DNA from: Hippasteria phrygiana
Lineage: Eukaryota; Echinodermata; Asteroidea; Valvatida; Goniasteridae
NCBI GenBank assembly: GCA_037893225.1
Contig: JAZGUH010000564.1
Coordinates: 1,860,001-1,924,000, forward strand
Direction: 5' to 3'
Length of the DNA stretch: 64,000 bases
A program made the position numbers and the translations under genes. The first letter of the stretch is position 1. Each line of letters starts with the position of its first letter. This document shows positions 6,813 to 44,200 of the stretch, piece after piece. The notes beneath the pieces are model-generated. The model was not told the origin of the DNA. It worked only from the letters and a program-made list of their open reading frames with translations, and searched no databases.

Positions 6813-6813
6813 C

Positions 6814-20628: not shown

Positions 20629-21617
20629 CTCGATCTAACGTTGTCTTACCTTGCATTTACTTTTCACGCGTCACGCGGTGCGAAAACTTGCAACCAATAA
20701 CATCACAGAATCAGCTTGCCGAAATGGCGGCCGAGTTGTATATCCTGGGTAATTTCAATAAATCGGTCGAGTTCCCCATCTTTCGCGCCTACGGCGCTCT
20801 ACTATCTTTGGTTACATGTACTGCTGCACGGTTACAAGCTACCGTAGGACTGTTGTACTATTTAACCAATCAGTGCTGTTGTATGAGAAACGCGTGCAGC
20901 GCTCATGCACCGCGCGAACATACTGCGCCTCCGCACTGTGTGTATAAATTCGACTGATTTTCCATTATTTGGGTTCTGTTCCGTTCCTGGAGTGGAACGC
21001 GCAAGATTTCAGGACCCCAAGACCATTCAAGATAGCCCAGCATTCGCTTGCTCAAGGCGGATGTGCACTGTTCTTGCGCTTAATTTGGGCTCAATAATAA
21101 CACGTAATTAGTTTGCGTGTATAAACCGGAGCCGTTTGACTAGACTAGTCCCTGGGCGGGACATGGTTATATAAAAGGCATTCTAACTGCTCGAATGTGT
21201 AGAGCCATCGAAAGTTACAGTATATGCGCTCAGAGCTACCATACGCTACCATTTTCTTCAGTCTCAACTCTCGTACGACAACAATCTTTTAAACACTGGA
21301 TTACCATTGTGAGAGGGACTGAAACCAGTCTAATGTACATGATCATGCAGAGGGCGCTGTTCAAGTTTATTCCAGATAATTATTGCTGAATAATAAATGT
21401 ACACAGACCGTGTTCTTTATTGGTTGAGAGTAACCCTTCTTCTCAAGACCCGATTATTTATTAGTCTCATGTTCTTGACACACATCCCCTTGAACACAAT
21501 CTCACTCGTTTTTAACATTATCAGTACAAAGCTTCCGGCACAATAACTGGGACCTAGCTGTATGACAAGGTGTAAGCCCATACTTGCACATTTCTAGCAA
21601 GCAGGCCGAAATCGTTA
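20629..21617. other. Likely 5' flank of the THAP gene; no gene seen
   Basis: This stretch is relatively CpG-rich, lies immediately upstream of the transposase start and contains CGAAATGGCGGCCG on the + strand. A TATAAATTC word sits near 20943. A 115-codon + frame (20610-20957) has no recognisable domain and probably does not code. Confidence 0.4.
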
Positions 21618-21844
21618 CAGTATGGCCTTTTTGGTTTGCGAGCGATTCAGAAAGATCTCCGCGCGGTGCCCCGAATCCTTCGCGTAGAAATTGCTGTACT
21701 GTACTACGGCTGGAGAGACGTTACCATCCAGCAGGGACCAGACTTGTTGTGTGCGCTATGACGTCGGGGTCAATCGCTTCATTCGGCGCATGTGTGCACA
21801 CGATTTATCAGGTGTTGTTTCCACCGATTGACGACTGTTTCATG
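21618..21844 (+). repeat. Left terminal inverted repeat of the two-gene element
   Basis: CAGTATGGCC...CTGTTTCATG matches the reverse complement of 34350-34572 with fewer than about ten differences by eye, and homology stops at both ends. A TA dinucleotide lies just outside both copies. Each copy lies upstream of an inward-pointing gene in the same relative orientation, so it may also carry the promoter. Confidence 0.65.
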
Positions 21845-22991
21845 TCGCAAAAGGTAGTGGCCGCTATTACAACTATTTTTGAGCTGAGTGGCCGGTAGTT
21901 GTCGACATTTACTCTGATTCAGGTCAGGTTTTGTTTACATTTTAATGAGCACTTCACATAATTAAGAATAATTGAAACAATCTGTATAGGTTAAATACAT
22001 TACTGTGGTTTGTTTAATTAGAGTTGTTTTAAATTGGACGTGTTGGAGAATTGTTTAAGATTATAAAGTTCTTAATTAGTGCAGCCTTTGTGGGACGTGG
22101 GACTTGGACCCTGTGAAAAATAAATCTGAAATTTTTCTTGAGGTTTTTCTATTTTTTTTTTTTATTTCTTTAACTTTACTCAATTTGTTTTGGTGGCATT
22201 GTGCATTTATTGAAAATCATCACTTTTATTGACTACTAACGTTAATAGGCCTACTAAAAAATAGAATAATAATTGAAAATCTTCCCTCATTTTGTGTATT
22301 GCATTAACATTTGTCAGACTTTTTTTTTGTGCTGTAAGATCGGCTGTATTGCGTCATCCGCCTCGATTCATTAAACTCATTTGTTGGTGTTAAATTATAA
22401 CATTGGCTATGTATTGTCTCATCTGATTAGAAATCCTCCAACTCCGTTTAGGGTTTATATTTTTTAGGATTTTTCTGGATTTCATGATTTGTTGTCGTGA
22501 TTTGTACTGATTTAAATTTTTATAAAAAAACTCTTTTTAAAGCTTGAATTCCTGATGTCATGGGGTGTTACCCTGAAGGTGCTTTTACCTTTCAAAGTGG
22601 ATATAGACCAATAAAAAGTGGTATTTTGATATCTGCTTTTAGGCAAATACAAACCACAGACACTTTGTTGCTCCATGGTCCTCGGCGACCCCCAAACACT
22701 TCATATTTTTTGTTGAATTTTCTGTTTCGGCCAATCTCACCCCTGTCCGTTGGTTTTGTGCTGTGAGATTCTTTACATTTGACAGCTGTCGCTCAGTTTC
22801 ATTTCATGATCTTATTGAAGTCATCAGAATTGCACTGGAGGTTTGTGGGGCAATTAATTAACATTAAATTGCCCGTTTTTTGTGCTATCATGATCCGATT
22901 GAAATTCATCAACGTTTTTGTTTTGGTGTAAGATTCTTGAAACAGTACATCCTCTCTGTCCTGTCAGTTGCGTATCCTTCATGTACTGACC
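21845..22991 (+). other. 5' flank of the DUF6589-like gene
   Basis: This is AT-rich sequence between the terminal repeat and the first coding ATG, with no domain-bearing frame. It could contain 5' UTR; GGTAGTGG at 21853 is a possible donor. Confidence 0.35.
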
Positions 22992-23794
22992 ATGGATTTC
23001 AATCACTGCCTGAAGTGTAAGTCTCCCTTTGAGAGACAAAAAACCAGAAAGGATGGAAAAGGATTAGTTAGTCTTCGGGCCCTTGGTGTCTCAATTAGTA
23101 TGTTTGGGGTACAGGATGGGTACATTTGTTAGACGTGCCGAAAGGATGTAGGCGGGCATGTAGTACCACAAACCACCCAAAGAACACCAACTGTACATTC
23201 AACTGTACACTCGAAGAAGAGAGTACTAAGTACCCCAAGGAGCATCCGAACACCAAAAACCCGGCGACTGAAGTCCCCAAAATCGTGTGGGTCACAAAAT
23301 AAAATCTCATTGAAAGAAAGGGCAAAGTCTGCTATCAATGAAAGCAAGTACGAAACAGTATTTAAGGTTCTGCTTGAAAGCAGCACTGCTCAAGAAGCAT
23401 TTCTGAGAGTTATCAAAAAGCAGGTACAGGCGGAAATCAAAAGGTATCCCAAAACAGGGCTTCTTTCTCAACCTGTCAGTGTAGATGCTCTTCAGACTTG
23501 GAATTGGCAGAAGGTTGTTAAGCAAGCTGCTTTGCAGATGCCAGTTCTTGTGCACGCACTACAAGGTAGTCTTCCAGACCCCGGGAAAAGTAGACCAGGA
23601 CAATTCTTTTTGGGAAAGAAAATAACATCAACTGAAGAAGCTCAACTCCTGTTTCACATGCGTGTTGGCCTTTTTCTGTCTGTCATGTTGTACTGATATA
23701 AGCTCAAGTGTTTCAAGTTCATGCAGAGTTGCCTTTCTGCGCAACTTTGGAAAAACGGTTGCAGTAAAAGACTCATAGAATGTCTACATGGTCT

Positions 23795-23885
23795 CACTAT
23801 GAACATCTAACAAAAGAAAACCCACGCAGTCCTTTGTTACAAACAAAGGACTGCGTGGGTTTTCTTTTGTTAGATGTTCATAGTG
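23795..23885. repeat. Perfect 44-bp-arm hairpin
   Basis: The arms 23795-23838 and 23842-23885 are exact inverted copies with a 3-base loop (ACA). It begins CACTATGAACATC and ends with the complement, and lies inside the DUF6589-like frame. It looks like an inverted duplication of local gene sequence, not a transposon with its own ends. Confidence 0.85.
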
Positions 23886-24169
23886 TCTTGGGGTCTGCCA
23901 AGGTATGACATCCACTCGAAAGACCATTTGATACGGTCTGTTTAGAGACTAAAAAGAAGATGAAACAGTGGCAGCTTGACATTCAAGACAACATCCTAAC
24001 TTCTAAAGGACAACCTGCAGGTGAACCAAAAAGGAGACTGTTTTCAGATGGAGAATGGAGTGATGGTTGGGCCAGTGACACAAGTAAAAGTACTGGTACA
24101 AGTTGTACGAATAGTAGCGCTGATGACAGTGTAAGTGGCATATTCCTACTTGGTGGTCCATCACATGAA

Positions 24170-24295
24170 GAAAGACAACAGAAAGAACAATGGGAGGCAC
24201 CACTAAATGAAGAAAGACAACAGAAAGAACAAGGGGAGGCACCAGTAAATGAAGAACTTGACAACAGAAAGAAGAAGGGGAGGCACCAGTAAATA
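24170..24295 (+). repeat. Coding minisatellite, three units
   Basis: Three units of 42, 42 and 44 bp start GAAGAA and contain GAC(A)ACAGAAAGAA and GGGAGGCACCA. They encode a Glu/Gln-rich repeat (NEERQQKEQ...EAP). The third unit's extra two bases shift the frame and lead to a stop. Confidence 0.7.
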
Positions 24296-26456
24296 AACAA
24301 GGTGATTCGTCACCAAACGAGGTACATGTACAACAGAGAAACCAAGGGGAAGTACCTGTTCAACCTAACTTGTCACAAAAAGACAAACCAGAGGGTAACC
24401 AAGGGGATGTACACATACACCGACAGGATGACAAGAAAGTACATGTACCTGGATACTGCATTACATGGGATAATGTACAGATACAAACAACAGGACGCCG
24501 AAAGTCACGTGGTCAAGGAAACAAATTCAGGATATGGGCCCAATACCTTCGCCACAAAGAACAGAATTCCTGTTGGTAATGGGTCAGATACTGATGTTGT
24601 CAGGGCAGACAGCATTCCGTTGAGCAAGTTTCTTCCCTCTCAGTGTGATTGGGACGATTTAAAAGCTCAAGTATGCGTTGTTGTGGAACACATACTGAAA
24701 ATGCACTTGAAATTTCTGGGGAACGTGAAGTGTTCCCCCTTTGCCAGACATAGGGGCCTATACACTGAAAAAATGGCATGCAAAAGTGAAATAGTCAACT
24801 TGGGTGTCATTGAAGAAAATCCTTCCAGCACACCATGAACTGTACGGATCATGGAATATCTCCATCAATATGTACCAACAAATGGTAAAGATATGTTCCC
24901 AGTTGTGTGCTTTGGCGATGGCCTGTCAGTTGAAAGGATGCTTGATTCACAAAAGGCAAGAGCTACGGGTGAGACGATGCGAGACAGACTTCAGGGATTG
25001 GTGCCGTGTCCACAGGAATTTCACAAACGGGGCATTCTACTGCAAGACACAATGAATACATTCTTTACAGGTGACAGTGCAACTCAAAGGGGTTGTCTTT
25101 ATCAACTAAAGCAAGATTTTAATCACAAATCAGTGAACAAAAATGTGATGGACAATTTCAATCACGTGACTGATTTGCTTCAGTTCACCACCCAGGCATA
25201 CTGCACAATGCTGGCTATGAAGCTCGGTCACCTTCAAACAACAGATGATACACCCTCCAGTTTTCCTCCTTGTAAGTATCCTACAAAGCAAAGTCAATGG
25301 TTGAGCAACTTGGCACGTGAGGTTGTAAATTTCATTTGGCCCCAACTCCCCACTGAGGAATTGAATATTGCCTGCTCGCAAAAGGGCATTCAGAATGATA
25401 CTGGACATGAAAATGAACATCTACTTGAGGGAATTGATGACACCATTGATGCTGAAGATGATGGGTGCAAATGTGGAGAGAGTACAGGTGAAAATACGGT
25501 GAGGTGTGCCAATTATGACTGCAGTTGGTTCCATTATACTTGTGTCCAGCTCCGAGAAGTACCTGAAGGTAATTGGTGGTGCTCTGCATAGTGTAGAGAG
25601 TCCAACTTGTACATTTATTGTCACTGTCAAAAGAAGACCGGTCAGGAGGATGAAATGATTCAATGTGAAATGCAAGATGGATGCACGCAACATGAGTGGT
25701 ACCACCCTGATTGTATTGATGGGGCTGCCGACTTGCCTGACAAGTGGTTTTGTTGCATTAAATGTGAGAAGAAAGGATCCGTAGGAATGGCAGATGGGGA
25801 TGGAAGATTAGAATACTCGAAGGCATTGTTGTATGAAGGTCTGCACCATCTTGCTTTACGACATTCCATACGTGCAGGTGATGGGCCTGCCCTGATGAGA
25901 CACTGGCGCCTCAACATGATTCAGTTTTGGAAAAACAACCACTACAAGTATTCTATTTTGGCTCATAATAATGCTAGCTGCAGTAAATGGCTTCTATCCA
26001 GCAAGAATTGCCAATGACATCATATGGAATAGGGTAGCCAATCTGACTGGCAGAGAACAGGGAAATCTTGGTTTAGATCTAGTCAATGAGTTTCTTAATT
26101 GTGATTACAAGGAAATGTTGAAACGGTCAAAGGGGGTGTACACAAAGGACCAAGTACACAGATGTAGTAACATGTCTGGAGCGTATGGTCGTCATCTTGA
26201 TGATATGTTTCTGTTATCTATGGTAGGGAGTGGTGGAAAATCAACACGTCACCGACATGCAAAGTATGCGAAAGATGTACAGCATTTTGTGAAGGAATAC
26301 AAGGATGACTGACTGTTTGATTTTGTCCCTGGCCGGTGCCACCATTCCTTTCCAAATTTCAAGCACTCTCTCATTGTTCAGCCACCAGAGAAAATGGGCC
26401 TGAAACTGGTTAGGCTAAGCAAATCAATGGACACATGGAGATCATTTATGCAGTAA

Positions 26457-28004
26457 CAATACAAGGTTCATTATTTCAAGTACTGACATTTGAGGCTGTC
26501 TTCATGTTTCCTTTGCCTTGAAACTGACATCACGATTGAATTTTGTTCCAACACTCCTGTTACATGCATTTAGCTGTTTCCCCACATGTACTTTACGTCT
26601 TAAAAGAGGCAATTAGGAGGGTATTTTGAAGGTGTTTCAAATCTTGGTGGTATGTGCTAGGGTGAGTTTCGTGATTTTTATTTCCTACTTAATTGAGCAC
26701 AACAAAGGTAGATCTGAAAAAATACATGTAGTGCCACTATTTTTGCCACTTACAAGCCTACATTTCAATTTTGATTATTTCAAGCCCCTGAGGTCCACTA
26801 ATTTTGTTTTCAATGAGTGTATCGGTATTTCAACCAAAGGAGCTGTCCATAGAGTTTTTTGGAAGGGGGTGTTGACCTTGTTTACACCGTGCATATACTT
26901 GGGGATGGGGTCCAAGCCAATGGGCACATACATATGTACACATACCAGTTGTCGAATTTCATGTAAAAATCTACTAGGCAGCTGGGCTAGTAGCACACAA
27001 AATTTACTAGACCGGAAGGTATTTCACAAGATCAATGGTAAAAAGAAGAACACACGTGTTTTGAAGGAGTGTGCCATTTCGATTTCTTTCACTTTGCTGA
27101 CCTTGTTGGGGGAGAGGTTAGAAATTTTGTGATTGAAACTCCCTGCCTCAAAAATACAAATGGCCATTCTAGAATTTATGGGGCTTTTTCAGTTGACCAG
27201 ATTTATAATTTGTTTTGTAGTGATAGCATTTCACGCAGTTTATGAAAAAAAATCACTAGACTACCGGACTAGTTTGGTCAAGAGTTCAATAGACCAACGC
27301 TCAAATCACTGGACTCGGTCCAGTGTTCCAGTGGATATTTCGATCCCTGCATACATGTAGTTATATTTTACTTGAAATACATTGTGATAAAATCCATGGA
27401 TAAAATAATGTACTAATCCAACCTTAATACCTAACAGGGCCAGCTTGCATGCATCAAAGGTTGTTACACTACTCAATAAATTGAAATTATGCACTACCGG
27501 CTTCAAGCTCAGATTGGCACATCAGTTTCCTGTATGTGTACACAAAGTACATGAATATGTATCCACCTTTATACTGGAAAATTGGTAAGTACACATGTAA
27601 TAAAATTAGTACATGCTCCCGTCATTGAGAAACTGCAAATGACAACACAGGGAGTTCATCATCCTTTTTCTTGGCAAAGGGTGCTCCTTTCATACTAGCT
27701 AATGCAAATGTAATTCATTATAATTTATCAAACAATCCACAAAGGAAACTGGCTAGTTAAATTTGAATACATTTTGAAAATGTATTCAAATTTACCTAAT
27801 CAGTTTCCTTTTTGGATTGTTTGACGAATTATAAGTTAAAAAGTCGTATCCTCATTGAGTGATCCCCACAATGTCGCTTCCCAGGTTGTATCGTAAAATT
27901 GGGTGTGATCCCTTGACATATACGGCATTCTGGGTTTATGACTTTTGACTAGCGCCCATGCACCCGAACAAAGATACAAACAATTTTGGAGACCGCCAAC
28001 ATAG
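26457..28004. other. Intergenic region between the convergent genes
   Basis: No recognisable gene. A 168-codon + frame (26626-27132) has no domain and ends in low-complexity sequence. A palindromic MITE occupies 27717-27835. Confidence 0.45.
27717..27835. mobile_element. Palindromic MITE/foldback element
   Basis: Arms 27717-27775 and 27777-27835 are inverted copies with about half a dozen mismatches and a single-base centre (ACATTTT g AAAATGT). It has no coding capacity. Confidence 0.65.
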
Positions 28005-28076
28005 GGCAAGATAGCTCAGTTGGTAGAGCGCCGGTACAGTAACCCGGAGGTCGCAGGTTCGAATCCCGCTCCTGCC
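28005..28076 (+). tRNA. tRNA-Thr-like sequence, probably a pseudogene or SINE head
   Basis: Seventy-two bases fold as a cloverleaf: acceptor GGCAAGA/TCCTGCC, D arm GCTC...GAGC, anticodon stem CCGGT/CCCGG, T arm GCAGG TTCGAAT CCCGC. Both internal promoter boxes are present (TAGCTCAGTTGG and GGTTCGAATCC). Counting the 7-base loop ACAGTAA puts AGT (Thr) at the anticodon. C replaces the universal T33, and single mismatches occur in the acceptor, anticodon and T stems, so a working tRNA is unlikely. Confidence 0.6.
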
Positions 28077-28547
28077 AGTTTCTTTGTTCATTTTGAAAAA
28101 AATCTGTATAATTTAACTAAAAAGTGATATTAAATGTAAAAAAGTGAAAGGCTCCTTCGGAGTTAAAGTCTCCCTTTGGGTTGTACCACAGATGCTGAAC
28201 ACAAAATATATCAGCATATTGTACTTTCTGTGTTTGGAGGCCCCAGAAAACCTTTACCTGTTTGTTTTTCTGATTTCTAACTGTTAAAAATCTGAACAAC
28301 ATGAAATAAAATGTATTTTGTCACCCAAAAACTGTTCAATTTCAAAGTTTTGGCTTGAGCTACTGATCAAAAATAAAGCAATAGAATTACATTGTCTGTA
28401 TTACTTTTAAGACTCCATTTAAAGAAATGGATTAAATGAACAATACAAAGTGCAGACCATGTACATGTAAAAATACAGACAAAATACTGAAATTAATTTC
28501 AAAACATTCAAAGGCAGTGCCTTCAGTTCGATCAGTTACATGTATGA
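28077..28547. other. Downstream flank of the helicase gene
   Basis: This is AT-rich sequence with no gene, probably containing the helicase 3' UTR on the - strand. Confidence 0.4.
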
Positions 28548-29965
28548 TCATTTTGACTTTTGACAGGGACATCGAGCTTGACAAAGAGAGCAACACATGC
28601 ACTTAGTGCGTTTGCACCCCTCATCAGTGCACATGTTTGTACAGCTGTCTTCAGCATGGACAGGCTGTGGTCCCATCTTATCGATCCACAAATGGGACAG
28701 AATCGCTCTTCCCATGCATGGCAGCTCACCACTCCCAAATTTGGCCATCATTTCCTTGAACTCTCTGTTTGTGGTCACATAACCACGGGTTGCTGTCTGA
28801 TACAAGATGGTTGTACCTGGCTCGCCATCTCGACTGCATCTGCCTACTTCTTGCCAGTAGTCCACAATGCTCTTTGACATCCCCCAGTGGAAGACGTACC
28901 TGACTTGATGGACCTCAATGCCCATCCCAAATGCAATTGTGTCAAGGACGCAACGGAGGACTCCATTTGCAGTGAATGAATTCACCACTCTCTCCTGGCT
29001 GGTGAGATCTAGTGAAGAGTGATACATATCAATGATCAGGTTTACTGGCACTTTTTCGTGGATGACCCATGCCAAGTCTCCTAGGGCTGCCATCATGTAT
29101 CCGAACAGTTTAGAAACTTTACCAGCATATCTGCAAAAAACACAAAAAATGGGGGGTTAAGGGAAAATAGGTGAATTGTTAGCCCTTTGATAGTTTTTTT
29201 TAAAGACTCGATTTTGATGTTTACCCAATGCACTGTGACCTATCCCTTACAAGTGCAGAAGAAGTTGTCATTGTGTTCGAGAAGACTAGAGGCCTTTTCA
29301 CACTAGAGCGCCGATCCCCGGGGCAAACTCACCCTGGTTAATGGTATTAATAAAGGGAAAGTATATATTTTGCAGCTATCAAAAAAGTCGCCAAGAAAAG
29401 TATTTTTCAAAAGATAAATTCATTGTAAGATATACATTTCTTTGAACTCCCTTTGAAATTATTCATTCTGACATGCCGTCATTTTGAAGAAAATTATGAT
29501 AAAAAATAATTTTAAAAAGTGCATCTGAGATACGCATTTTAAAAAATGTCCAGTCGTACATACATGTATAGTTGGTTTGTAATCTGCAAACGGTGCTTGT
29601 AAGGACTTGGAACGACAAGCACACGTGTGCGCGGGCATTATTATTGGTCAGTTTTGTGTGTGACAAGGGTGCTGATGCAATTTGCTGAATGAAAACGCGC
29701 CCCGAGTCATATCAATTAAAATTGTACCAGCACATTTTGAATTGAAATCAAAATCTGTTCATATTGTTTACCAAGAATATACATCATTGACAGAGAAAAA
29801 AAATGCATCAGGTTAATTGTCAAACACTTGTTTTCAAATTTTGATCACTTTGCTGCTTGATACAATAAAAATGAACAACTAATAAAATGGTAGGCTGTCC
29901 CTTTCAGGTCACACAAACTGTGACGATTGTGCCCAGATGATATCAGTCACTGTCATCTGCTTTGA

Positions 29966-30018
29966 GGGGGGGGGGGGGGGGGGGGGGGGGGGTGGTCACA
30001 CCTTACCCCCCCCCCCCA
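29966..30018. repeat. Poly(G)-poly(C) inverted tract at the array's left edge
   Basis: Twenty-seven Gs (29966-29992) and 13 Cs (30006-30018) are separated by 13 bases, so the two runs can pair as a hairpin. The C run is the shared left boundary of every array unit. It lies in the intron between helicase exons 5 and 6. Confidence 0.75.
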
Positions 30019-32961
30019 AAAAGGGGAATTTTTTTTTTCCAGTCACTAAAACAGTCAACCTATCAACCATTTGCTTATTGCAACCAACATTCAACAGAGA
30101 TAATTTAATACATTGTGTACCTGCAATATATTATTGCTTTCTTTGCCTGTACTCCTTTTGTTCGTAGCTCATCGATGTATTCCAGTAGCCATTGGGGTTG
30201 TTCAATGTCATCTTCGCCCACCACCCGGGAACAGTATTTGAGGAAAATGTTTGGCCTACAAATGAAATAGAAAAGGAATACAGTACTAGTGTGGGAAGTT
30301 ACTTTCATGTCAAATTTCAAAGTGTAGTTTCTGTAGTCATACATGCAATTTGAATGTAGCCGATATGTGTGACCTTGGTGACACAAAGTTATTTTGTGAT
30401 GTACATTGCTTGAACCAACATAATAGTATTTAAGTAGCTGTCTTTCTAACTAATTGAACTGTTTCACAGCTTGAAAATATGTATCACTTCGGAGAATGAT
30501 TTTGTGCTTAATTGAATTCTTATTTTAACACTTGAAACCAGTGTAAGTGAAAGGATCGGAGTATCTACATGGATATTTTCCTTGTATAAACCATAAGAGA
30601 AGGATGGCCTTGCCACAATCATTAAAATTCTGTGTCTTTTTCACTTTTGTGATAGACAGGAAAAAATACATTTTAAAATCTGTACATGTGTACGTAGGGT
30701 TTAGAAAAACAGGGAAATGAACAGTTTATATAAAACCAAAAATACATACAACATGTATTTATATAAAAAGTCATCCACTTCTTCTGTAATGTATGCATGG
30801 TTACTGTGTTAGGTTTAAATATTGTCTCCACAAGCAGGTACGAGACAGTAACATACATGTAGCCTAACCTATCTGGACTTTGGGCTACAATTTCCATCAT
30901 TGCTGGATCAAGGTGTAATGTTTGCAATACGTTTTGTCTCAGGGTCTTTGGCAAGGTAGCCGTCATAACAAGAGTAGGTACTTCACCAACCATACTGCGA
31001 ATTTGACCTACACGGCTGTAGGTTTCACGGAAATCATCACCCCTGGAAAAACAACAAACAAGTTTAGGTTCATTTTTTTAAATTTCTGTTGCCTTCTGTT
31101 TATTTCTGGATTTCTCTCCTTCCGAGGGGGTGGCTGTTTGCTGATTGTTGTATTACTTTAAGAGTACATCCTCCTGGACACATTAAAATGACTATCATGG
31201 CTGGAAGTGTTAAGACAGTATTGAAGTTTTAACTGTTTCTCTATATCATATATAGTTATATGTATTGCATGTATATTCATACGTTTATATTTATTTTCCC
31301 AATAAGAATGATAATCTCAAAGGAGAAATTCAAATGTCTGTGTAAATTTCTTTTTGACTGCTCTGTCACTTTATTTAAATTCAAATTTGCCTTCTGATTC
31401 TGGTCAGTGCAAAGTATAAACATATTGCAAATGAGCAGTGAGCACATATTTTAGCATCTGCATGAGACAACATTGTTGTAAAGTACTTCCATTTACCATT
31501 GAGCTATGCAGTGTGCCTCATCAAAAACAATAAGGCCAAGTGCTGCCTAAAATGGCCTTCACGCATCAGTTGCCTCCATGGCTGGTCTTCGGCCAGAATG
31601 GCTTCTGGTGAGTTGAATATTAAATTAACCCTGCCTTCCATGATAGCTGGAATGAGAATGTTCAGATTATTAGATCATTCATGGCAACCATTTCTTCGTC
31701 CTTAATAGATTCATATATAGGTAGTGTGGAAAATCATTTAGACATTTTCGGATTTGGGACTGTTAGGCTTAATATATGATGTGTATACAAACATCCAAAC
31801 ATGCCAAAGGGGTACATGTTGTAAGCTTTTGGTTCATTTTATTCAGATACAAACAGAAGCCATAACACTGCAGAGTTGTGTTTTATATTGAAGAGGATAT
31901 GAAACTTAATATCTACTACACTAACAGCAAAATGTGCAATACATAATCTGTAAACAGAAGTCAACCCTGTGCAACTGTGTACTACACAGATACTATCAAG
32001 TGAATAATTTTTGATAGGATAATTCAAAGTGTTTTAAACATTTGTTTAGGATGATAGGCAAGATGTTAAGGAACCTGCGTTGAATTTAGGAACCTTAAAA
32101 TTGAGGGGGCTCTCTTTAGAGGCTGAACAATGAATAAACTTCATTTACACCTTACCCTTCTTGTTCTCTACTTTCATCTCTGATGGTGGTAAGATGCAGC
32201 CTGATGTGATGATTCCACTGCTGTCCCACCTTTTGACTTGATCCATCATGAGCGCCCTTAGAGGGGACACTATTACGGCAATGTGAGGGCTGTCTTTGGG
32301 ATGCAGCTGCGTGTATGAACATTTTTATTTATACCTCGTGAATCTATCATTAATGTTAACAAAAACCAGAAAAACCACTGACAATAGGTGCATAATATTT
32401 ATCAAATTGTAATATTTTGTTATTTCAACTAAAAATGTTTTAGGCATTTATTCAGTTTCCATTTGTGGTTGATATAAACATTTGTAATAAATAGCCACAT
32501 TCTGTTGGTGATCATCGTTCCATATTTCCTAGCAGCAAAGTGTGAAACCATCAATTTACGAATTACACACTAATTTTGGGATGTTCATGTATGCAGGAGA
32601 GACAAGTTTGCTAGGCCAAATAAGAGAAATTAGTTTCTCCTTCTCATGTGCACCTTTTCTTGGCTTTTTGGGGAATTGTTTATAGTATTACAAACAGAAA
32701 TGCGAAAACATCAAAGTAATTTTTACACTTGCACTTTTCTCATGATTGCAATTTTTCTCTTCTGCATGAAGTCTATTATCATAAGACACGACACTTTATA
32801 ATTCTGCGATACAAATACGTCAGTCCCCCAAAAAAACTTAGTTGTTTTTATATAATGTCTTATCTTGTTGAAATTCCTAAACATGATGACACTCCAAATT
32901 AACCCTAACATTCCTGAATCCTCCAATTCTAGTATGACCTATGGAGTTAGGATGGGTGAAT

Positions 32962-33171
32962 CAAGGGCGGATCCAGAACACAATTTCTTTTTGGGGGGGG
33001 ACCAACATTATTTTTTGGGCAATTTCTTTTTGGGGGGGGCAAAACAAAATGTTGGCCGAGTTTTGTGGGTGGGTGTACGCAGTTGCTGCCTTTTTGCACC
33101 GTCAGTTTAAAAAAGAAAGATTTTTTGGGGTGGGCATGACCCCCCCCCCCCCCCCCCTGGATCCGCCCTTG
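32962..33171. mobile_element. hAT-like MITE in the helicase intron, repeated in every unit
   Basis: It starts CAAGGGCGGATCCAG and ends CTGGATCCGCCCTTG, a perfect 15-bp terminal inverted repeat. An exact 8-bp duplication, GGGTGAAT, lies at 32954-32961 and 33172-33179, as in hAT elements. The inside is rich in G and C runs. Other copies: 38611-38815, 44255-44461, 49889-50094, 55535-55745 and 61176-61391; they differ mainly in run length. Confidence 0.8.
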
Positions 33172-33337
33172 GGGTGAATGGAAAAATACCATATTCGTTT
33201 TTTTGTTTGTTTGTTTGTTGTTTTTTACTTGTAGGGCTACGCCTAAAGTTGCAAACCCTACAGGTCTTATTTTGCATATGGGTAAGAACAAAACAAAGAG
33301 GTTAAATGGCGCAACCAACGGTGAGAAAGTGTTAGCC

Positions 33338-33470
33338 CCCCCCCCCCCCCCCCCCCCCCAAGCACACCCAAGCCCAGCCCCCCCCCCCCTGCCCCCTTGT
33401 AATTTGTTGTTCTAGACAAATTTTTCGAACCCCCCCCCCCCCCTGCAAAAAATACTGGATCCGCCTTTGG
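33338..33470 (-). mobile_element. Related G/C-run MITE fragment
   Basis: Three poly(C) runs are followed by TACTGGATCCGCCTTTGG, which resembles the right end of the hAT-like MITE. No matching left end is clear, so it is a fragment or a nested insertion. It is repeated in every unit with changing run lengths. Confidence 0.5.
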
Positions 33471-34349
33471 GGTGGGGGAAAGAAATATGTAAGCATCTTT
33501 TGTAAAATAGGTTTTTTTGTTTTATTTTGGGTGTTTCTTTTTGGGGGGGGGGGGGGTGAGGGGTTGGGTAATTGTGGTGGGTAGTTTCAGACGGGATTCA
33601 GTGTGGCCTAATAATTAGCTCAGTAGTCTTTGTATCGGGATGAGATGCACTAACCTTATCATGTATATGGTATGGAGGCAAAAATTGTGCTTTTGTCAGA
33701 TCCTGTTGGGAGGATAGCTAGCACATTCTTGTCCATTAGAAAGCCGATGGCCTCTTTCTGCGGTGGCCTTAACTCATATCCCAGTTTTGAAACCAGGTCA
33801 GTAAGAATAGCTTCCATGCTTGGTTTATTTGTTGGATATAATGTGACAAATAGACTGTTGCAAGCAGAATGTGACTCAGGATGTCAAGTCTGATTTGTGA
33901 ACTTTAATATCAACAAAATGTTGATTGAAAATGGTAAAGGCAGTTATATATATACATTTTTTTAATAAGGTAAGATATTTGTTAAAGTCCAAATTACCCA
34001 AGCTTGCTGATTGAAATATTTGTGTACAAACAACAACCTGGTAAAAAAAAGTTTGGAGTACAAGGATGTTACATGTACATTATTTTGTGTATTCCATTGT
34101 CACTTGGCTTTTGCAGGTTCTGATCTGATTGGGTATTCCTTCAATGTTTTTTTTTTTTGCTCAGGAAAAACAGTTTTTAACATTCAGTTAATTTCAGTCT
34201 ACTACTAGTTAATCATAATGAACTTGACCATTTACAAAATCATTGTCCCATTTGAACGTTATTGCGCTGCGGCGCGGTGAGACAAGGTGACTGGAATCTA
34301 CTCTAAACTGAGCACACTCTAAACTTATTTGGATTTTAAGTACATGTAG

Positions 34350-34572
34350 CATGAAACAGTCGTCAATCGGTGGAAACAACGTCTGATGAATCGTGTGCAC
34401 ATGTGCCGAATGAAGCGATTGACCCCGACGTCATAGCGCGCAACAAGTCTGGTCCCTGCTGGATGGTAACGTCTCTCCAGCCGTAGTACAGTACAGCAAT
34501 TTCTACGCTAAGGATTCGGGGCACCGCGCGGAGATCTTTCTGAATCGCTCGCAAACCAAAAAGGCCATACAG
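34350..34572 (-). repeat. Right terminal inverted repeat of the two-gene element
   Basis: This is the inverted match of 21618-21844, ending GGCCATACAG followed by TA. It lies 530 bp upstream of the helicase start codon. Because it is inside the amplified unit it recurs at 39994-40216, 45628-45850, 51273-51495, 56914-57136 and 62562-62784. Confidence 0.65.
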
Positions 34573-34709
34573 TAGTATAGTAATCTCCGATCCCATGTCA
34601 TTTAAAAAACCTCCCCAATTTTGCTGTAGGTACATACACCAAATTTTTAGAAAAGTTGAAATTCCAAAATCGTCTAAAAATCGCCCAAAAATATATCTAA
34701 ATTTCTCTA

Positions 34710-34739
34710 AATTTTGCTGTATATCTATACAGCAAAATT
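34710..34739. repeat. 14-bp-arm perfect hairpin before the virus-like ORF
   Basis: AATTTTGCTGTATA and its complement are separated by TC. The half-word AATTTTGCTGTA also occurs near 34618. It is AT-rich and 140 bp upstream of the ORF start. It occurs in every unit. Confidence 0.7.
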
Positions 34740-34881
34740 AGTACAAAATCAACAAAATCAAAAACGAAAAAACACTTTTTTCGTTGTTCACGCAGATACT
34801 TTTCCCCCAAAATAACATAGCCTAAAAAAAAATTTAAAAAATTACTTTTTTTTTTTAAATATTATAGTTGTTACTATAAAG

Positions 34882-35643
34882 ATGGAAAACCAACCTTTGA
34901 TTCACGGATACAATAGATGGAACAAAATAGCATTAAAAAAATATATCGATAAGTATAACTTATCTTTAGGAACACCAACAGGGCGCCGTAATACGTATAT
35001 CAGACGAGATTATATTTACGCTATAAAGAAAGAGGAAAACAAATTGAAAAATTTGAGAGTTCAAACTAAAGAAAGTCTAGCGCGAATCATACGCGATAAA
35101 AATATTCCAGTCACTTCTACGGGCAGAAATGGTCAAGCGCTGAAAAAAGATTACATCGAGGCTATAAAAAGATTTAAATCTCCAAATATTTTTCGAGAAT
35201 CAGACTTTCGAGAGACGAGAAGATTTTCGAACAGTTATAGAAATTGGGAAATTGTACCGAATCTGTTTATCGACGATCCGGAACAATTTTACAACACCCA
35301 CGCGTCGATGATCAAAAGAAAAATAACCGCCGAATTAAGAGAAATAAAAGCGATGAAAGTTCAGATCGCTATGAAAATAAAATATAAGAAAAGTACATAG
35401 GATGGTGAGGCTGTAACATCGACTGCAACTCATTTTAGTCATCAAAATCGTGTTTTAAACGAGAGCGATATACAAACAACGCTCAGACGACAACATGAAA
35501 CGATATTATCTCAGATAGATAAATACACTAATAAAGGAAGCGGTTGGATCGTAGATAAGATAATTGCGTTTTACATCAACATAAACAGAGCTAACTCACT
35601 CGCGGGTGCTTCTTACGTAGAACTACCCGAATATATAACTTAC
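34882..35643 (+). pseudogene. Virus-like (Polinton/adintovirus-type) gene fragment, unit 1
   Basis: An AT-rich 172-codon frame ends at TAG 35398-35400, but the same frame stays open for 80 more codons until poly(C). Before the stop are two SAP/Rho-N-like helix-turn-helix repeats (about residues 14-50 and 60-95), followed by a basic helical part. After the stop is GSGWIVDKI...ASYVELPEYI, a motif I associate with N-terminal regions of proteins in Polinton/adintovirus-like elements, often near protein-primed DNA polymerases. Everything beyond is lost at the poly(C). It lies outside the right terminal repeat, so it is the insertion target of the two-gene element. Base composition is more AT-rich than its neighbours. 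The family call is from memory of motif patterns. Confidence 0.45.
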
Positions 35644-38600
35644 CCCCCCCCCCAAAAAAAGGGGAATTTTTTTTTTCCAGTCACTAAAACAGTCAACCTA
35701 TCAACCATTTGCTTATTGCAACCAACATTCAACAGAGATAATTTAATACATTGTGTACCTGCAATATATTATTGCTTTCTTTGCCTGTACTCCTTTTGTT
35801 CGTAGCTCATCGATGTATTCCAGTAGCCATTGGGGTTGTTCAATGTCATCTTCGCCCACCACCCGGGAACAGTATTTGAGGAAAATGTTTGGCCTACAAA
35901 TGAAATAGAAAAGGAATACAGTACTAGTGTGGGAAGTTACTTTCATGTCAAATTTCAGAGTGTAGTTTCTGTAGTCATACATGCAATTTGAATGTAGCCG
36001 ATATGTGTGACCTTGGTGACACAAAGTTATTTTGTGATGTACATTGCTTGAACCAACATAATAGTATTTAAGTAGCTGTCTTTCTAACGAATTGAACTGT
36101 TTCACAGCTTGAAAATATGTATCACTTCGGAGAATGATTTTGTGCTTAATTGAATTCTTATTTTAACACTTGAAACCAGTGTAAGTGAAAGGATCGGAGT
36201 ATCTACATGGATATTTTCCTTGTATAAACCATAAGAGAAGGATGGCCTTGCCACAATCATTAAAATTCTGTGTCTTTTTCACTTTTGTGATAGACAGGAA
36301 AAAATACATTTTAAAATCTGTACATGTGTACGTAGGGTTTAGAAAAACAGGGAAATGAACAGTTTATATAAAACCAAAAATACATACAACATGTATTTAT
36401 ATAAAAAGTCATCCACTTCTTCTGTAATGTATGCATGGTTACTGTGTTAGGTTTAAATATTGTCTCCACAAGCAGGTACGAGACAGTAACATACATGTAG
36501 CCTAACCTATCTGGACTTTGGGCTACAATTTCCATCATTGCTGGATCAAGGTGTAATGTTTGCAATACGTTTTGTCTCAGGGTCTTTGGCAAGGTAGCCG
36601 TCGTAACAAGAGTAGGTACTTCACCAACCATACTGCGAATTTGACCTACACGGCTGTAGGTTTCACGGAAATCATCACCCCTGGAAAAACAACAAACAAG
36701 TTTAGGTTCATTTTTTTTTATTTCTGTTGCCTTCTGTTTATTTCTGGATTTCTCTCCTTCCGAGGGGGTGGCTGTTTGCTGATTGTTGTATTACTTTAAG
36801 AGTACATCCTCCTGGACACATTAAAATGACTATCATGGCTGGAAGTGTTAAGACAGTATTGAAGTTTTAACTGTTTCTCTATATCATATATAGTTATATG
36901 TATTGCATGTATATTCATACGTTTATATTTATTTTCCCAATAAGAATGATAATCTCAAAGGAGAAATTCAAATGTCTGTGTAAATTTCTTTTTGACTGCT
37001 CTGTCACTTTATTTAAATTCAAATTTGCCTTCTGATTCTGGTCAGTGCAAAGTATAAACATATTGCAAATGAGCAGTGAGCACATATTTTAGCATCTGCA
37101 TGAGACAACATTGTTGTAAAGTACTTCCATTTACCATTGAGCTATGCAGTGTGCCTCATCAAAAACAATAAGGCCAAGTGCTGCCTAAAATGGCCTTCAC
37201 GCATCAGTTGCCTCCATGGCTGGTCTTCGGCCAGAATGGCTTCTGGTGAGTTGAATATTAAATTAACCCTGCCTTCCATGATAGCTGGAATGAGAATGTT
37301 CAGATTATTAGATCATTCATGGCAACCATTTCTTCGTCCTTAATAGATTCATATATAGGTAGTGTGGAAAATCATTTAGACATTTTCGGATTTGGGACTG
37401 TTAGGCTTAATATATGATGTGTATACAAACATCCAAACATGCCAAAGGGGTACATGTTGTAAGCTTTTGGTTCATTTTATTCAGATACAAACAGAAGCCA
37501 TAACACTGCAGAGTTGTGTTTTATATTGAAGAGGATATGAAACTTAATATCTACTACACTAAAAGCAAAATGTGCAATACATAATCTGTAAACAGAAGTC
37601 AACCCTGTGCAACTGTGTACTACACAGATACTATTTTAGTGTTATCAAGTGAATAATTTTTGATAGGATAATTCAAAGTGTTTTAAACATTTGTTTAGGA
37701 TGATAGGCAAGATGTTAAGGAACCTGCGTTGAATTTAGGAACCTTAAAATTGAGGGGGCTCTCTTTAGAGGCTGAACAATGAATAAACTTCATTTACACC
37801 TTACCCTTCTTGTTCTCTACTTTCATCTCTGATGGTGGTAAGATGCAGCCTGATGTGATGATTCCACTGCTGTCCCACCTTTTGACTTGATCCATCATGA
37901 GCGCCCTTAGAGGGGACACTATTACGGCAATGTGAGGGCTGTCTTTGGGATGCAGCTGCGTGTATGAACATTTTTATTTATACCTCGTGAATCTATCATT
38001 AATGTTAACAAAAACCAGAAAAACCACTGACAATAGGTGCATAATATTTATCAAATTGTAATATTTTGTTATTTCAACTAAAAATGTTTTAGGCATTTAT
38101 TCAGTTTCCATTTGTGGTTGATATAAACATTTGTAATAAATAGCCACATTCTGTTGGTGATCATCGTTCCATATTTCCAAGCAGCAAAGTGTGAAACCAT
38201 CAATTTACGAATTACACACTAATTTTGGGATGTTCATGTATGCAGGAGAGACAAGTTTGCTAGGCCAAATAAGAGAAATTAGTTTCTCCTTCTCATGTGC
38301 ACCTTTTCTTGGCTTTTTGGGGAATTGTTTATAGTATTACAAACAGAAATGCGAAAACATCAAAGTCATTTTTACACTTGCACTTTTCTCATGATTGCAA
38401 TTTTTCTCTTCTGCATGAAGTCTATTATCATAAGACACGACACTTTATAATTCTGCGATACAAATACGTCAGTCCCCCAAAAAAACTTAGTTGTTTTTAT
38501 ATAATGTCTTATCTTGTTGAAATTCCTAAACATGATGACACTCCAAATTAACCCTAACATTCCTGAATCCTCCAATTCTAGTATGACCTATGGAGTTAGG

Positions 38601-41282
38601 ATGGGTGAATCAAGGGCGGATCCAGAACACAATTTCTTTTTGGGGGGGGACCAACATTATTTTTTGGGCAATTTCTTTTTGGGGGGGGCAAAACAAAATG
38701 TTGGCCGAGTTTTGTGGGTGGGTGTACGCAGTTGCTGCCTTTTTGCACCGTCAGTTTAAAAAAGAAAGATTTTTTTGGGTGGGCATGACCCCCCCCCCCC
38801 CTGGATCCGCCCTTGGGGTGAATGGAAAAATACCATATTCGTTTTTTTGTTTGTTTGTTTGTTGTTTTTTACTTGTAGGGCTCTACGCCTAAAGTTGCAA
38901 ACCCTACAGGTCTTATTTTGCATATGGGTAAGAACAAAACAAAGAGGTTAAATGGCGCAACCAACGGTGAGAAAGTGTTAGCCCCCCCCCCCCCCCCCCC
39001 AAGCACACCCAAGCCCAGCCCCCCCCCCCCCTGCCCCCTTGTAATTTGTTGTTCTAGACAAATTTTTCGAACCCCCCCCCCCCCCCCCCCCCTGCAAAAA
39101 ATACTGGATCCGCCTTTGGGGTGGGGGAAAGAAATATGTAAGCATCTTTTGTAAAATAGGTTTTTTTGTTTTATTTTGGGTGTTTCTTTTGGGGGGGGGG
39201 GGGGGTGAGGGGTTGGGTAATTGTGGTGGGTAGTTTCAGACGGGATTCAGTGTGGCCTAATAATTAGCTCAGTAGTCTTTGTATCGGGATGAGATGCACT
39301 AACCTTATCATGTATATGGTATGGAGGCAAAAATTGTGCTTTTGTCAGATCCTGTTGGGAGGATAGCTAGCACATTCTTGTCCATTAGAAAGCCGATGGC
39401 CTCTTTCTGCGGTGGCCTTAACTCATATCCCAGTTTTGAAACCAGGTCAGTAAGAATAGCTTCCATGCTTGGTTTATTTGTTGGATATAATGTGACAAAT
39501 AGACTGTTGCAAGCAGAATGTGACTCAGGATGTCAAGTCTGATTTGTGAACTTTAATATCAACAAAATTTTGATTGAAAATGGTAAAGGCAGTTATATAT
39601 ATACATTTTTTTAATAAGGTAAGATATTTGTTAAAGTCCAAATTACCCAAGCTTGCTGATTGAAATATTTGTGTACAAACAACAACCTGGTAAAAAAAAG
39701 TTTGGAGTACAAGGATGTTACATGTACATTATTTTGTGTATTCCATTGTCACTTGGCTTTTGCAGGTTCTGATTGGGTATTCCTTCAATGTTTTTTTTTT
39801 TTGCTCAGGAAAAACAGTTTTTAACATTCAGTTAATTTCAGTCTACTACTAGTTAATCATAATGAACTTGACCATTTACAAAATCATTGTCCCATTTGAA
39901 CGTTATTGCGCTGCGGCGCGGTGAGACAAGGTGACTGGAATCTACTCTAAACTGAGCACACTCTAAACTTATTTGGATTTTAAGTACATGTAGCATGAAA
40001 CAGTCGTCAATCGGTGGAAACAACGTCTGATGAATCGTGTGCACATGTGCCGAATGAAGCGATTGACCCCGACGTCATAGCGCGCAACAAGTCTGGTCCC
40101 TGCTGGATGGTAACGTCTCTCCAGCCGTAGTACAGTACAGCAATTTCTACGCTAAGGATTCGGGGCACCGCGCGGAGATCTTTCTGAATCGCTCGCAAAC
40201 CAAAAAGGCCATACAGTAGTATAGTAATCTCCGATCCCATGTCATTTAAAAAACCTCCCCAATTTTGCTGTAGGTACATACACCAAATTTTTAGAAAAGT
40301 TGAAATTCCAAAATCGTCTAAAAATCGCCCAAAAATATATCTAAATTTCTCTAAATTTTGCTGTATATCTATACAGCAAAATTAGTACAAAATCAACAAA
40401 ATCAAAAACGAAAAAACACTTTTTTCGTTGTTCACGCAGATACTTTTCCCCCAAAATAACATAGCCTAAAAAAAATTTAAAAAAATTTAATTTTTTTTTT
40501 TAATATTATAGTTGTTACTATAAAGATGGAAAACCAACCTTTGATTCACGGATACAATAGATGGAACAAAATAGCATTAAAAAAATATATCGATAAGTAT
40601 AACTTATCTTTAGGAACACCAACAGGGCGCCGTAATACGTATATCAGACGAGATTATATTTACGCTATAAAGAAAGAGGAAAACAAATTGAAAAATTTGA
40701 GAGTTCAAACTAAAGAAAGTCTAGCGCGAATCATACGCGATAAAAATATTCCAGTCACTTCTACGGGCAGAAATGGTCAAGCGCTGAAAAAAGATTACAT
40801 CGAGGCTATAAAAAGATTTAAATCTCCAAATATTTTTCGAGAATCAGACTTTCGAGAGACGAGAAGATTTTCGAACAGTTATAGAAATTGGGAAATTGTA
40901 CCGAATCTGTTTATCGACGATCCGGAACAATTTTACAACACCCACGCGTCGATGATCAAAAGAAAAATAACCGCCGAATTAAGAGAAATAAAAGCGATGA
41001 AAGTTCAGATCGCTATGAAAATAAAATATAAGAAAAGTACATAGGATGGTGAGGCTGTAACATCGACTGCAACTCATTTTAGTCATCAAAATCGTGTTTT
41101 AAACGAGAGCGATATACAAACAACGCTCAGACGACAACATGAAACGATATTATCTCAGATAGATAAATACACTAATAAAGGAAGCGGTTGGATCGTAGAT
41201 AAGATAATTGCGTTTTACATCAACATAAACAGAGCTAACTCACTCGCGGGTGCTTCTTACGTAGAACTACCCGAATATATAA
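35639..41282. repeat. Array unit 2
   Basis: It has private variants in helicase exon 4 (one A-to-G change near 36603) and CCAAGCAGC near 38180. It shares a T-run variant near 36715 with unit 6. Confidence 0.9.
35759..39466 (-). pseudogene. Helicase exons 1-5, unit 2
   Basis: Same five exons and same lesions as unit 1 (GSDKS, frameshift before DEAH, stops at the end of E1). There is no exon 6 downstream: the next sequence is the virus-like fragment of unit 1. The Met before TAT in exon 4 reads TTATLPKTL here. Confidence 0.75.
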
Positions 41283-41287
41283 CTTAC
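40526..41287 (+). pseudogene. Virus-like gene fragment, unit 2
   Basis: The protein is identical to unit 1, with the same TAG (41042-41044) and the same open extension into poly(C). The upstream A/T run differs slightly from unit 1. Confidence 0.45.
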
Positions 41288-44200
41288 CCCCCCCCCAAAA
41301 AAAAGGGGAATTTTTTTTTTCCAGTCACTAAAACAGTCAACCTATCAACCATTTGCTTATTGCAACCAACATTCAACAGAGATAATTTAATACATTGTGT
41401 ACCTGCAATATATTATTGCTTTCTTTGCCTGTACTCCTTTTGTTCGTAGCTCATCGATGTATTCCAGTAGCCATTGGGGTTGTTCAATGTCATCTTCGCC
41501 CACCACCCGGGAACAGTATTTGAGGAAAATGTTTGGCCTACAAATGAAATAGAAAAGGAATACAGTACTAGTGTGGGAAGTTACTTTCATGTCAAATTTC
41601 ATAGTGTAGTTTCTGTAGTCATACATGCAATTTGAATGTAGCCGATATGTGTGACCTTGGTGACACAAAGTTATTTTGTGATGTACATTGCTTGAACCAA
41701 CATAATAGTATTTAAGTAGCTGTCTTTCTAACGAATTGAACTGTTTCACAGCTTGAAAATATGTATCACTTCGGAGAATGATTTTGTGCTTAATTGAATT
41801 CTTATTTTAACACTTGAAACCAGTGTAAGTGAAAGGATCGGAGTATCTACATGGATATTTTCCTTGTATAAACCATAAGAGAAGGATGGCCTTGCCACAA
41901 TCATTAAAATTCTGTGTCTTTTTCACTTTTGTGATAGACAGGAAAAAATACATTTTAAAATCTGTACATGTGTACGTATGGTTTAGAAAAACAGGGAAAT
42001 TAACAGTTTATATAAAACCAAAAATACATACAACATGTATTTATATAAAAAGTCATCCACTTCTTCTGTAATGTATGCATGGTTACTGTGTTAGGTTTAA
42101 ATATTGTCTCCACAAGCAGGTACGAGACAGTAACATACATGTAGCCTAACCTATCTGGACTTTGGGCTACAATTTCCATCATTGCTGGATCAAGGTGTAA
42201 TGTTTGCAATACGTTTTGTCTCAGGGTCTTTGGCAAGGTAGCCGTCATAACAAGAGTAGGTACTTCACCAACCATACTGCGAATTTGACCTACACGGCTG
42301 TAGGTTTCACGGAAATCATCACCCCTGGAAAAACAACAAACAAGTTTAGGTTCATTTTTTTAAATTTCTGTTGCCTTCTGTTTATTTCTGGATTTCTCTC
42401 CTTCCGAGGGGGTGGCTGTTTGCTGATTGTTGTATTACTTTAAGAGTACATCCTCCTGGACACATTAAAATGACTATCATGGCTGGAAGTGTTAAGACAG
42501 TATTGAAGTTTTAACTGTTTCTCTATATCATATATAGTTATATGTATTGCATGTATATTCATACGTTTATATTTATTTTCCCAATAAGAATGATAATCTC
42601 AAAGGAGAAATTCAAATGTCTGTGTAAATTTCTTTTTGACTGCTCTGTCACTTTATTTAAATTCAAATTTGCCTTCTGATTCTGGTCAGTGCAAAGTATA
42701 AACATATTGCAAATGAGCAGTGAGCACATATTTTAGCATCTGCATGAGACAACATTGTTGTAAAGTACTTCCATTTACCATTGAGCTATGCAGTGTGCCT
42801 CATCAAAAACAATAAGGCCAAGTGCTGCCTAAAATGGCCTTCACGCATCAGTTGCCTCCATGGCTGGTCTTCGGCCAGAATGGCTTCTGGTGAGTTGAAT
42901 ATTAAATTAACCCTGCCTTCCATGATAGCTGGAATGAGAATGTTCAGATTATTAGATCATTCATGGCAACCATTTCTTCGTCCTTAATAGATTCATATAT
43001 AGGTAGTGTGGAAAATCATTTAGACATTTTCGGATTTGGGACTGTTAGGCTTAATATATGATGTGTATACAAACATCCAAACATGCCAAAGGGGTACATG
43101 TTGTAAGCTTTTGGTTCATTTTATTCAGATACAAACAGAAGCCATAACACTGCAGAGTTGTGTTTTATATTGAAGAGGATATGAAACTTAATATCTACTA
43201 CACTAAAAGCAAAATGTGCAATACATAATCTGTAAACAGAAGTCAACCCTGTGCAACTGTGTACTACACAGATACTATTTTAGTGTTATCAAGTGAATAA
43301 TTTTTGATAGGATAATTCAAAGTGTTTTAAACATTTGTTTAGGATGATAGGCAAGATGTTAAGGAACCTGCGTTGAATTTAGGAACCTTAAAATTGAGGG
43401 GGCTCTCTTTAGAGGCTGAACAATGAATAAACTTCATTTACACCTTACCCTTCTTGTTCTCTACTTTCATCTCTGATGGTGGTAAGATGCAGCCTGATGT
43501 GATGATTCCACTGCTGTCCCACCTTTTGACTTGATCCATCATGAGCGCCCTTAGAGGGGACACTATTACGGCAATGTGAGGGCTGTCTTTGGGATGCAGC
43601 TGCGTGTATGAACATTTTTATTTATACCTCGTGAATCTATCATTAATGTTAACAAAAACCAGAAAAACCACTGACAATAGGTGCATAATATTTATCAAAT
43701 TGTAATATTTTGTTATTTCAACTAAAAATGTTTTAGGCATTTATTCAGTTTCCATTTGTGGTTGATATAAACATTTGTAATAAATAGCCACATTCTGTTG
43801 GTGATCATCGTTCCATATTTCCTAGCAGCAAAGTGTGAAACCATCAATTTACGAATTACACACTAATTTTGGGATGTTCATGTATGCAGGAGAGACAAGT
43901 TTGCTAGGCCAAATAAGAGAAATTAGTTTCTCCTTCTCATGTGCACCTTTTCTTGGCTTTTTGGGGAATTGTTTATAGTATTACAAACAGAAATGCGAAA
44001 ACATCAAAGTCATTTTTACACTTGCACTTTTCTCATGATTGCAATTTTTCTCTTCTGCATGAAGTCTATTATCATAAGACACGACACTTTATAATTCTGC
44101 GATACAAATACGTCAGTCCCCCAAAAAAACTTAGTTGTTTTTATATAATGTCTTATCTTGTTGAAATTCCTAAACATGATGACACTCCAAATTAACCCTA

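What the first reader, a model, noticed from the sequence alone, without database searches (positions are those of the whole stretch)
21618..34572. Candidate ~13-kb two-gene transposon: DUF6589-PHD protein and RecQ-like helicase between inverted repeats
Seen: a ~225-bp sequence at 21618-21844 recurs inverted at 34350-34572 and stops abruptly at both outer ends, with TA outside each. Between them lie exactly two multi-domain genes, convergent and each reading inward from its repeat. Known: the Academ superfamily, as I recall, has a branch carrying a superfamily 2 helicase, and DUF6589 proteins behave like mobile-element genes. Inference: one element with a chromatin-reading transposase candidate plus its own helicase. 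PHD fingers inside the DUF6589 region would be an unusual combination.
Basis: partly seen in the sequence, partly recalled or inferred. Interest (0 to 1): 0.85.

Follow-up and report, generated by a model that had tools for sequence, protein, structure and literature searches.

The report
Decayed transposon: PHD-bearing transposase plus helicase
A dead copy of a large animal jumping gene carries a probable DNA-cutting enzyme with built-in histone-reading fingers and a second enzyme that unwinds DNA, and its right end now stands in at least six tandem copies.

Summary
The inverted repeat is real: 21616-21844 matches 34574-34350 at 95% over 229 bp. A perfect 7-bp direct repeat, TACAGTA, lies at both edges, a candidate target-site duplication. 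Inside are two convergent, broken genes: DUF6589, with five in-frame stops and frame changes, and a RecQ-type helicase with a frame change and altered Walker A.

Two models of DUF6589 relatives resemble RNase H-fold transposases, though Foldseek alone gave no significant match. Two ING-like PHD fingers lie between the second Asp and the Glu; most relatives share them. RecQ helicase in Academ is in print, so this works like AcademH. I do not file it there: AcademH's 9-10-bp duplications are absent here. Other genomic copies could not be sought.

The parts
21616..21622 (+). TACAGTA, left copy of a perfect 7-bp direct repeat; candidate target-site duplication
   Evidence: a direct repeat of 7 or more at random boundary pairs with 8 shifts allowed: 0.19% of trials; weaker support in truth, because the 7-mer is nearly palindromic
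21623..21844 (+). Left terminal inverted repeat, starting TGGCC (the inverted match itself runs 21616-21844)
   Evidence: 95% to the reverse complement of 34350-34574 over 229 bp
22992..26450 (+). Broken DUF6589 gene, probable DDE transposase: N-terminal Cys-rich stretch from 23007, D1 in WDN 24463-24480, D2 in GDG 24911-24928, His 25013-25030, two PHD fingers, Glu in NEF 26079-26096; stops at 23130, 23694, 24836, 25589, 26310
   Evidence: fold of relatives
25457..25594 (+). PHD finger 1, ING-like, interrupted by the stop at 25589
   Evidence: Pfam NSD-type PHD below that family's cutoff; phmmer to YNG1 and ING chains, best E 4.9e-8
25607..25771 (+). PHD finger 2, keeping Tyr, Met and Trp at the positions of the ING H3K4me3 cage (cage positions recalled)
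28551..33883 (-). Broken RecQ-type helicase gene in pieces: Walker A 33686-33712 (GSDKS), motif Ia 32247-32267, DEAH 31505-31522 after a frame change, TATLPKT 30943-30963, 30117-30257, C-terminal exon 28551-29141 with Cys-rich tail (motif names recalled)
34350..34567 (-). Right terminal inverted repeat (the inverted match runs to 34574); it recurs in the five following array units
34568..34574 (+). TACAGTA, right copy of the 7-bp direct repeat
30002..35638 (+). First unit of the tandem array: helicase front half, right inverted repeat and 1,064 bp of outside flank
35639..64000 (+). Units 2 to 6 of the array and the start of the next, running off the window; all six units carry the Walker A, Ia and AIIYCR pieces, none carries motif VI

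Best explanation
This is a decayed, once autonomous cut-and-paste DNA transposon of about 12.9 kb (21623-34567 between 7-bp TACAGTA repeats) in an animal genome. Its left gene encoded a DUF6589 protein, most likely an RNase H-fold DDE transposase with two ING-like PHD fingers in the insertion between the second Asp and the Glu. Its right gene encoded a RecQ-type helicase. Inferred working: the transposase binds the long inverted repeats, cuts the element out and joins it to a new site; the PHD fingers read histone H3 tails, probably H3K4me3, to choose targets or to switch the enzyme on; the helicase opens or clears the ends or helps repair. Shown: the repeats, gene order, broken frames, the conserved D, D, E columns in relatives, and the fold resemblance. 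Inferred: catalysis, histone binding, the helicase's role, that TACAGTA is the target-site duplication, and that the element was once autonomous. Later the right end plus 1.06 kb of flank was amplified to at least six tandem copies, so that each added unit has the helicase front half without its back half.
Confidence: 0.74

Rival explanations
1. A plain member of the AcademH lineage of the Academ superfamily: DUF6589 is the Academ transposase and the helicase is the known accessory protein, so little but the name is new. (This rival changes the filing, not the mechanism above.)
For: RecQ helicase in Academ (passage of PMC3627910); AcademH in animals and fungi in a cited title; AcademH tied to DEAD and Helicase_C domains (PMC10799480 passages). 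Helicase_C is clear here; DEAD only weak in the window (E 0.0038, under its cutoff) and clear in the relative P0023.
Against: AcademH is said to make 9-10-bp duplications; here the best is 7 bp. Curated Academ of bivalves average 5,565 bp (passage), this is about 12.9 kb. No Academ transposase sequence was at hand, so homology was not tested.
Confidence: 0.5
2. The two genes belonged to different old elements brought together by chance; the inverted repeats bound a larger composite or a non-autonomous relative.
For: The window holds other mobile elements; linkage elsewhere was not tested.
Against: Both genes begin near a repeat, face each other and occupy most of the space, and the repeat edges carry a matching 7-mer.
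Confidence: 0.12
3. The tandem array is an assembly artefact, so only the first unit exists.
For: Units are nearly identical and many differences are homopolymer lengths.
Against: Each unit has private substitutions outside homopolymers, and unit 1, at the edge, has the most (5).
Confidence: 0.15
4. DUF6589 is a host gene family or a non-catalytic DNA-binding protein, and the element moved by another enzyme.
For: Foldseek had no confident catalytic-domain match.
Against: Conserved D, D, H, E columns and RNase H transposases at the head of both VIA lists.
Confidence: 0.1

Closest known systems
AcademH lineage of Academ DNA transposons (Kojima 2020; that paper is not held, known here from passages citing it)
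   Same: A helicase-bearing DNA transposon of animals and fungi (cited title); RecQ helicase reported in Academ.
   Different: AcademH duplications are 9-10 bp, here 7 bp at best; bivalve Academ average 5,565 bp, here about 12.9 kb; transposase homology not tested.
KolobokH and Kolobok-1_CCri
   Same: Transposase plus RecQ helicase, in Kolobok-1_CCri on the complementary strand as here (passage).
   Different: KolobokH is stated to be from fungi only; no TTAA duplication here (TTAA recalled as the Kolobok hallmark).
P element and hAT (Hermes) transposases, RAG1/Transib
   Same: Resemblance of the modelled core, with a large insertion before the Glu.
   Different: Sequence identity 7-14% in those alignments; the insertion here holds two PHD fingers.
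Rehavkus (Mutator relatives)
   Same: [quoted passage not shown] inverted repeats of 26-400 bp, a range that includes this one (PMC6446971 passages).
   Different: 9-bp duplications; the word helicase does not occur in that paper; transposase homology not tested.
TransibSU (RAG-like transposons, including the bat star Patiria)
   Same: A two-gene transposon of echinoderms (passages of PMC4411706); RAG2 carries a PHD finger that reads H3K4me3 (recalled).

Membership tests
AcademH | Encodes a superfamily 2 (RecQ-type) helicase | tested here: met
   Helicase_C; RecQ matches
AcademH | Target-site duplication of 9 or 10 bp | tested here: not met
   Best direct repeat beside the ends is 7 bp, TACAGTA; one decayed copy only
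AcademH | Transposase homologous to other Academ transposases | not testable with these tools
   No Academ sequence at hand; PMC7165386 not held
AcademH | Terminal inverted repeats | tested here: met
   95% over 229 bp
AcademX | Duplication of 3 or 4 bp | tested here: inconclusive
   CAG lies inside the 7-bp repeat, so a 3-bp duplication with longer repeat tips is not excluded
AcademX | XPG nuclease (recalled; the AcademX passage says only nuclease) | tested here: inconclusive
   None in Pfam scans of + 21618-29000 and - 26600-35700, all three frames each; - 21618-26600 and + 29000-34570 were not scanned
KolobokH | TTAA duplication (recalled) | tested here: not met
   Flanks read TTACAGTA and TACAGTAG
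DDE RNase H-fold transposases | RNase H fold of the core | tested here: inconclusive
   [not shown]
DDE RNase H-fold transposases | Conserved D, D, E | tested here: met
   18 of 19, 19 of 19 and 16 of 17 rows with a letter; which columns are catalytic is inferred
H3K4me3-reading PHD fingers (ING type) | PHD fold and Tyr, Met, Trp cage (cage recalled) | tested here: inconclusive
   Fold matches to ING and BPTF fingers; cage complete in PHD2 of the window, incomplete in PHD1; binding not testable
Rehavkus | 9-bp duplication | tested here: not met
   one decayed copy only

The most novel reading that the evidence does not exclude
A lineage of bilaterian transposons, outside Academ, whose DDE transposase reads H3K4me3 through PHD fingers built into its insertion domain and works with its own RecQ helicase: the single-protein counterpart of the RAG1 and RAG2 pair, with chromatin gating inside the cutting enzyme.
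Probability: 0.2. Interest if true: 0.75.

Novelty: new variant of a known kind. Interest (0 to 1): 0.48.

Why it matters
DUF6589 is listed in Pfam as of unknown function, and a search of the open-licence paper library for 'DUF6589' found nothing. Placing it among RNase H-fold transposases would give a function to a family met here in echinoderms, lancelets, hemichordates, molluscs and an annelid. Histone-reading fingers inside the insertion make a clear test possible: whether a transposase of this kind needs H3K4me3, as the RAG recombinase is helped by it through RAG2 (recalled). The array shows a transposon end turned into a multi-kilobase tandem repeat.

Tried and rejected
Rejected: that the right repeat is single. 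Rejected: that PHD inside DUF6589 is peculiar to this locus. Rejected: that the array units are copies of the whole element; motif VI is absent in 6 of 6 units, and the left-end half is not in the unit. Rejected: array growth that begins exactly at the transposon tip, since the unit runs 1,064 bp past it. I noted early that no clean duplication existed; the fuller comparison changed that to a 7-bp candidate.

Led nowhere: the genome search on the window's own genome with the left repeat, never answered. Viral-contig scans with P0007, the ORF at 34882 and P0006, and a genome-contig scan with P0007, found no relative. Alignment A2 had no stretch conserved enough to scan with. The ORF at 34882-35397 has no protein relative at E 0.001 and no Pfam or PHROGs match at E 1; the next piece, 35401-35637, has only weak rows (best Pfam E 0.0036, below that family's cutoff). 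The AcademH paper is not held. Paper searches for Academ with XPG, and for Academ with PHD finger and transposase, found nothing. Foldseek gave no match of any kind at E 0.001 or below. Both lists of solved-structure matches are second looks at Foldseek candidates, so absences there mean nothing.

Full report
Observation. The inverted repeat is real: 21616-21844 pairs with 34574-34350 at 95% over 229 bp (E 5e-99; shorter gap-free pieces). The outer edges read TTACAGTA|TGGCC on the left and GGCCA|TACAGTAG on the right. TACAGTA is therefore a perfect direct repeat of 7 bp at the edges. Random boundary pairs in the first 29 kb of the window, with 8 shifts allowed, give 7 or more in 0.19% of 200,000 trials. 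That control does not allow for the 7-mer being nearly its own reverse complement; since six of its seven bases also fit an inverted repeat, the real support is weaker, about 1 in 64 by my own reckoning.

From 30002 to 64000 the window is a head-to-tail array of a 5.64-kb unit, six units and the start of another. Each unit holds the front half of the helicase gene, the right inverted repeat and about 1,064 bp of outside flank. The helicase's last exon (28551-29141) lies outside the array, and no unit has motif VI (6 of 6). The six units show 30 substitution columns and many length differences, most at homopolymers. Outside homopolymers they differ by 4-9 substitutions in 5,242-5,256 compared positions, and each has private changes (5, 3, 1, 3, 2, 2), which speaks against one unit looped by the assembler. 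The unit starts at a C tract beside a run of 27 G. Because the array runs off the window, the original right breakpoint is not visible and no homology at it can be claimed.

The left gene. tblastn with Patiria, Branchiostoma and Mercenaria proteins follows the gene from 23007 to 26441 in four stretches and three frames: 23007-23795 (to 23834 with P0001), about 24358-24564 (found with P0006 and P0012 only), 24542-25969 and 25971-26441. In-frame stops lie at 23130 (TAG), 23694 (TGA), 24836 (TGA), 25589 (TAG) and 26310 (TGA), and at 23808 (TAA) in the P0001 extension. A perfect 44-bp inverted repeat with a 3-bp gap (23795-23885) lies where the first stretch ends. A CxxC..CxxC pattern in the first 160 residues was found in 5 of 21 rows (several rows are truncated); the window has its counterpart at 23007, with a stop inside. 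DUF6589 scores E 6e-19 in one frame. The stitched protein found 21 relatives at E 0.001 or better among 2,440 candidates, in Patiria, Branchiostoma, Saccoglossus, Ptychodera, Mercenaria, Pinctada, Capitella and Magallana and from unnamed sources; the closest that covers the query is 47% identical (P0002), and a fragment (P0007) 57%.

PHD fingers. Both fingers lie between the GDG and NEF motifs. PHD1 matches yeast YNG1 and ING fingers (best E 4.9e-8). In the alignment of 21 rows (the window plus 20 of the 21 relatives; P0003, an isoform, was left out) the PHD1 tryptophan column is filled in 20 rows (Trp 17, then Tyr, Phe, Val; the P0021 letter is a fragment end and no real finger), and PHD2 has Tyr in 15 of 18, Met in 14 of 17 and Trp in 15 of 17 rows with a letter. 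The column labelled PHD1 Met was set one residue too far right; by the alignment the window has Thr there. The cage residues are recalled from ING structures.

The right gene. Stitched pieces match a solved bacterial RecQ (1oyw, E 6.6e-37) and the human Q5, Bloom and Werner helicases (organisms recalled). Of 1,108 database hits the best 120 were listed; the first three are Patiria helicases: P0022 at 72% over 51% of the query, P0023 at 47% over 82% and P0024 at 45% over 79%. They share a Cys-rich tail. P0022 and the DUF6589 relative P0009 are both listed on a contig of 46,651,055 bases, so perhaps one Patiria chromosome; how near they lie is unknown. The window copy changes frame just before DEAH and its Walker A reads GSDKS in place of the usual Gly-Lys-Ser (usual form recalled, and GGGKS in 1oyw); the array units differ in length at the homopolymer there.

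Literature, as seen. PMC3627910 (one passage) names RecQ helicase in Academ. PMC10045372 (passages) gives 9-10-bp duplications for AcademH and 3-4 for AcademX. PMC9587614 (passages) describes RecQ in KolobokH and, on the complementary strand, in Kolobok-1_CCri. PMC10799480 (passages) ties AcademH and KolobokH to DEAD and Helicase_C domains. PMC6446971 (passages) gives Rehavkus a PHD finger in its transposase. PMC4411706 (passages) describes two-gene RAG-like transposons in Patiria. PMC10294476 (passages) counts Academ among DDE/D superfamilies, common in bivalves, with a mean length of 5,565 bp. PMC4522978 (passages) concerns subtelomeric RecQ genes of a fungus and did not bear on this. The primary AcademH paper was not held. 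A search for 'DUF6589' listed no paper.

Verdict. The element reading is well supported; the gene pair works like the helicase-bearing transposons already in print. The copy is dead, and its right end was amplified after insertion, recently compared with the decay of its genes (inferred: 0.08-0.17% between units against five stops in the transposase gene). Membership in AcademH is not claimed. The host is unknown; the nearest named relatives of both genes are in a sea star, so an echinoderm or other deuterostome is my guess.

Noticed in passing
15980-17410 (-): Open reading frame of 477 codons matching the P-element-like transposase RNase H domain (PF21787, E 4e-43), with HTH and GTP-binding insertion domains.
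   Followed up: partly
5297-13649: Retrotransposon with aspartic protease and reverse transcriptase; direct repeats 5297-5520/11877-12100 (96%) and 5553-6576/12722-13649 (86%) flank it, perhaps as long terminal repeats.
   Followed up: partly
28005-28077 (+): tRNA-Thr(AGT)-like sequence, 55.7 bits, between the two transposon genes; its acceptor stem has a mismatch by eye, so perhaps a tRNA-derived SINE.
   Followed up: partly
34882-35638 (+): Frame outside the right repeat, open but for one TAG at 35398, cut by the array junction; no relative found.
   Followed up: partly
23795-23885: Perfect 44-bp inverted repeat with a 3-bp gap inside the DUF6589 gene.
   Followed up: no
27718-27834: 58-bp near-palindrome (90%) with a 1-bp gap between the two genes.
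   Followed up: no
24165-24294: Three copies of a 42-bp repeat in the linker before the DUF6589 part.
   Followed up: no
33140-33556 and the same place in each unit: Runs of 12-24 C and of 14 G between helicase exons, varying in length between units.
   Followed up: partly
17674-17776 / 18013-18115: 103-bp inverted repeat, 88%, near the P-element-like gene.
   Followed up: no
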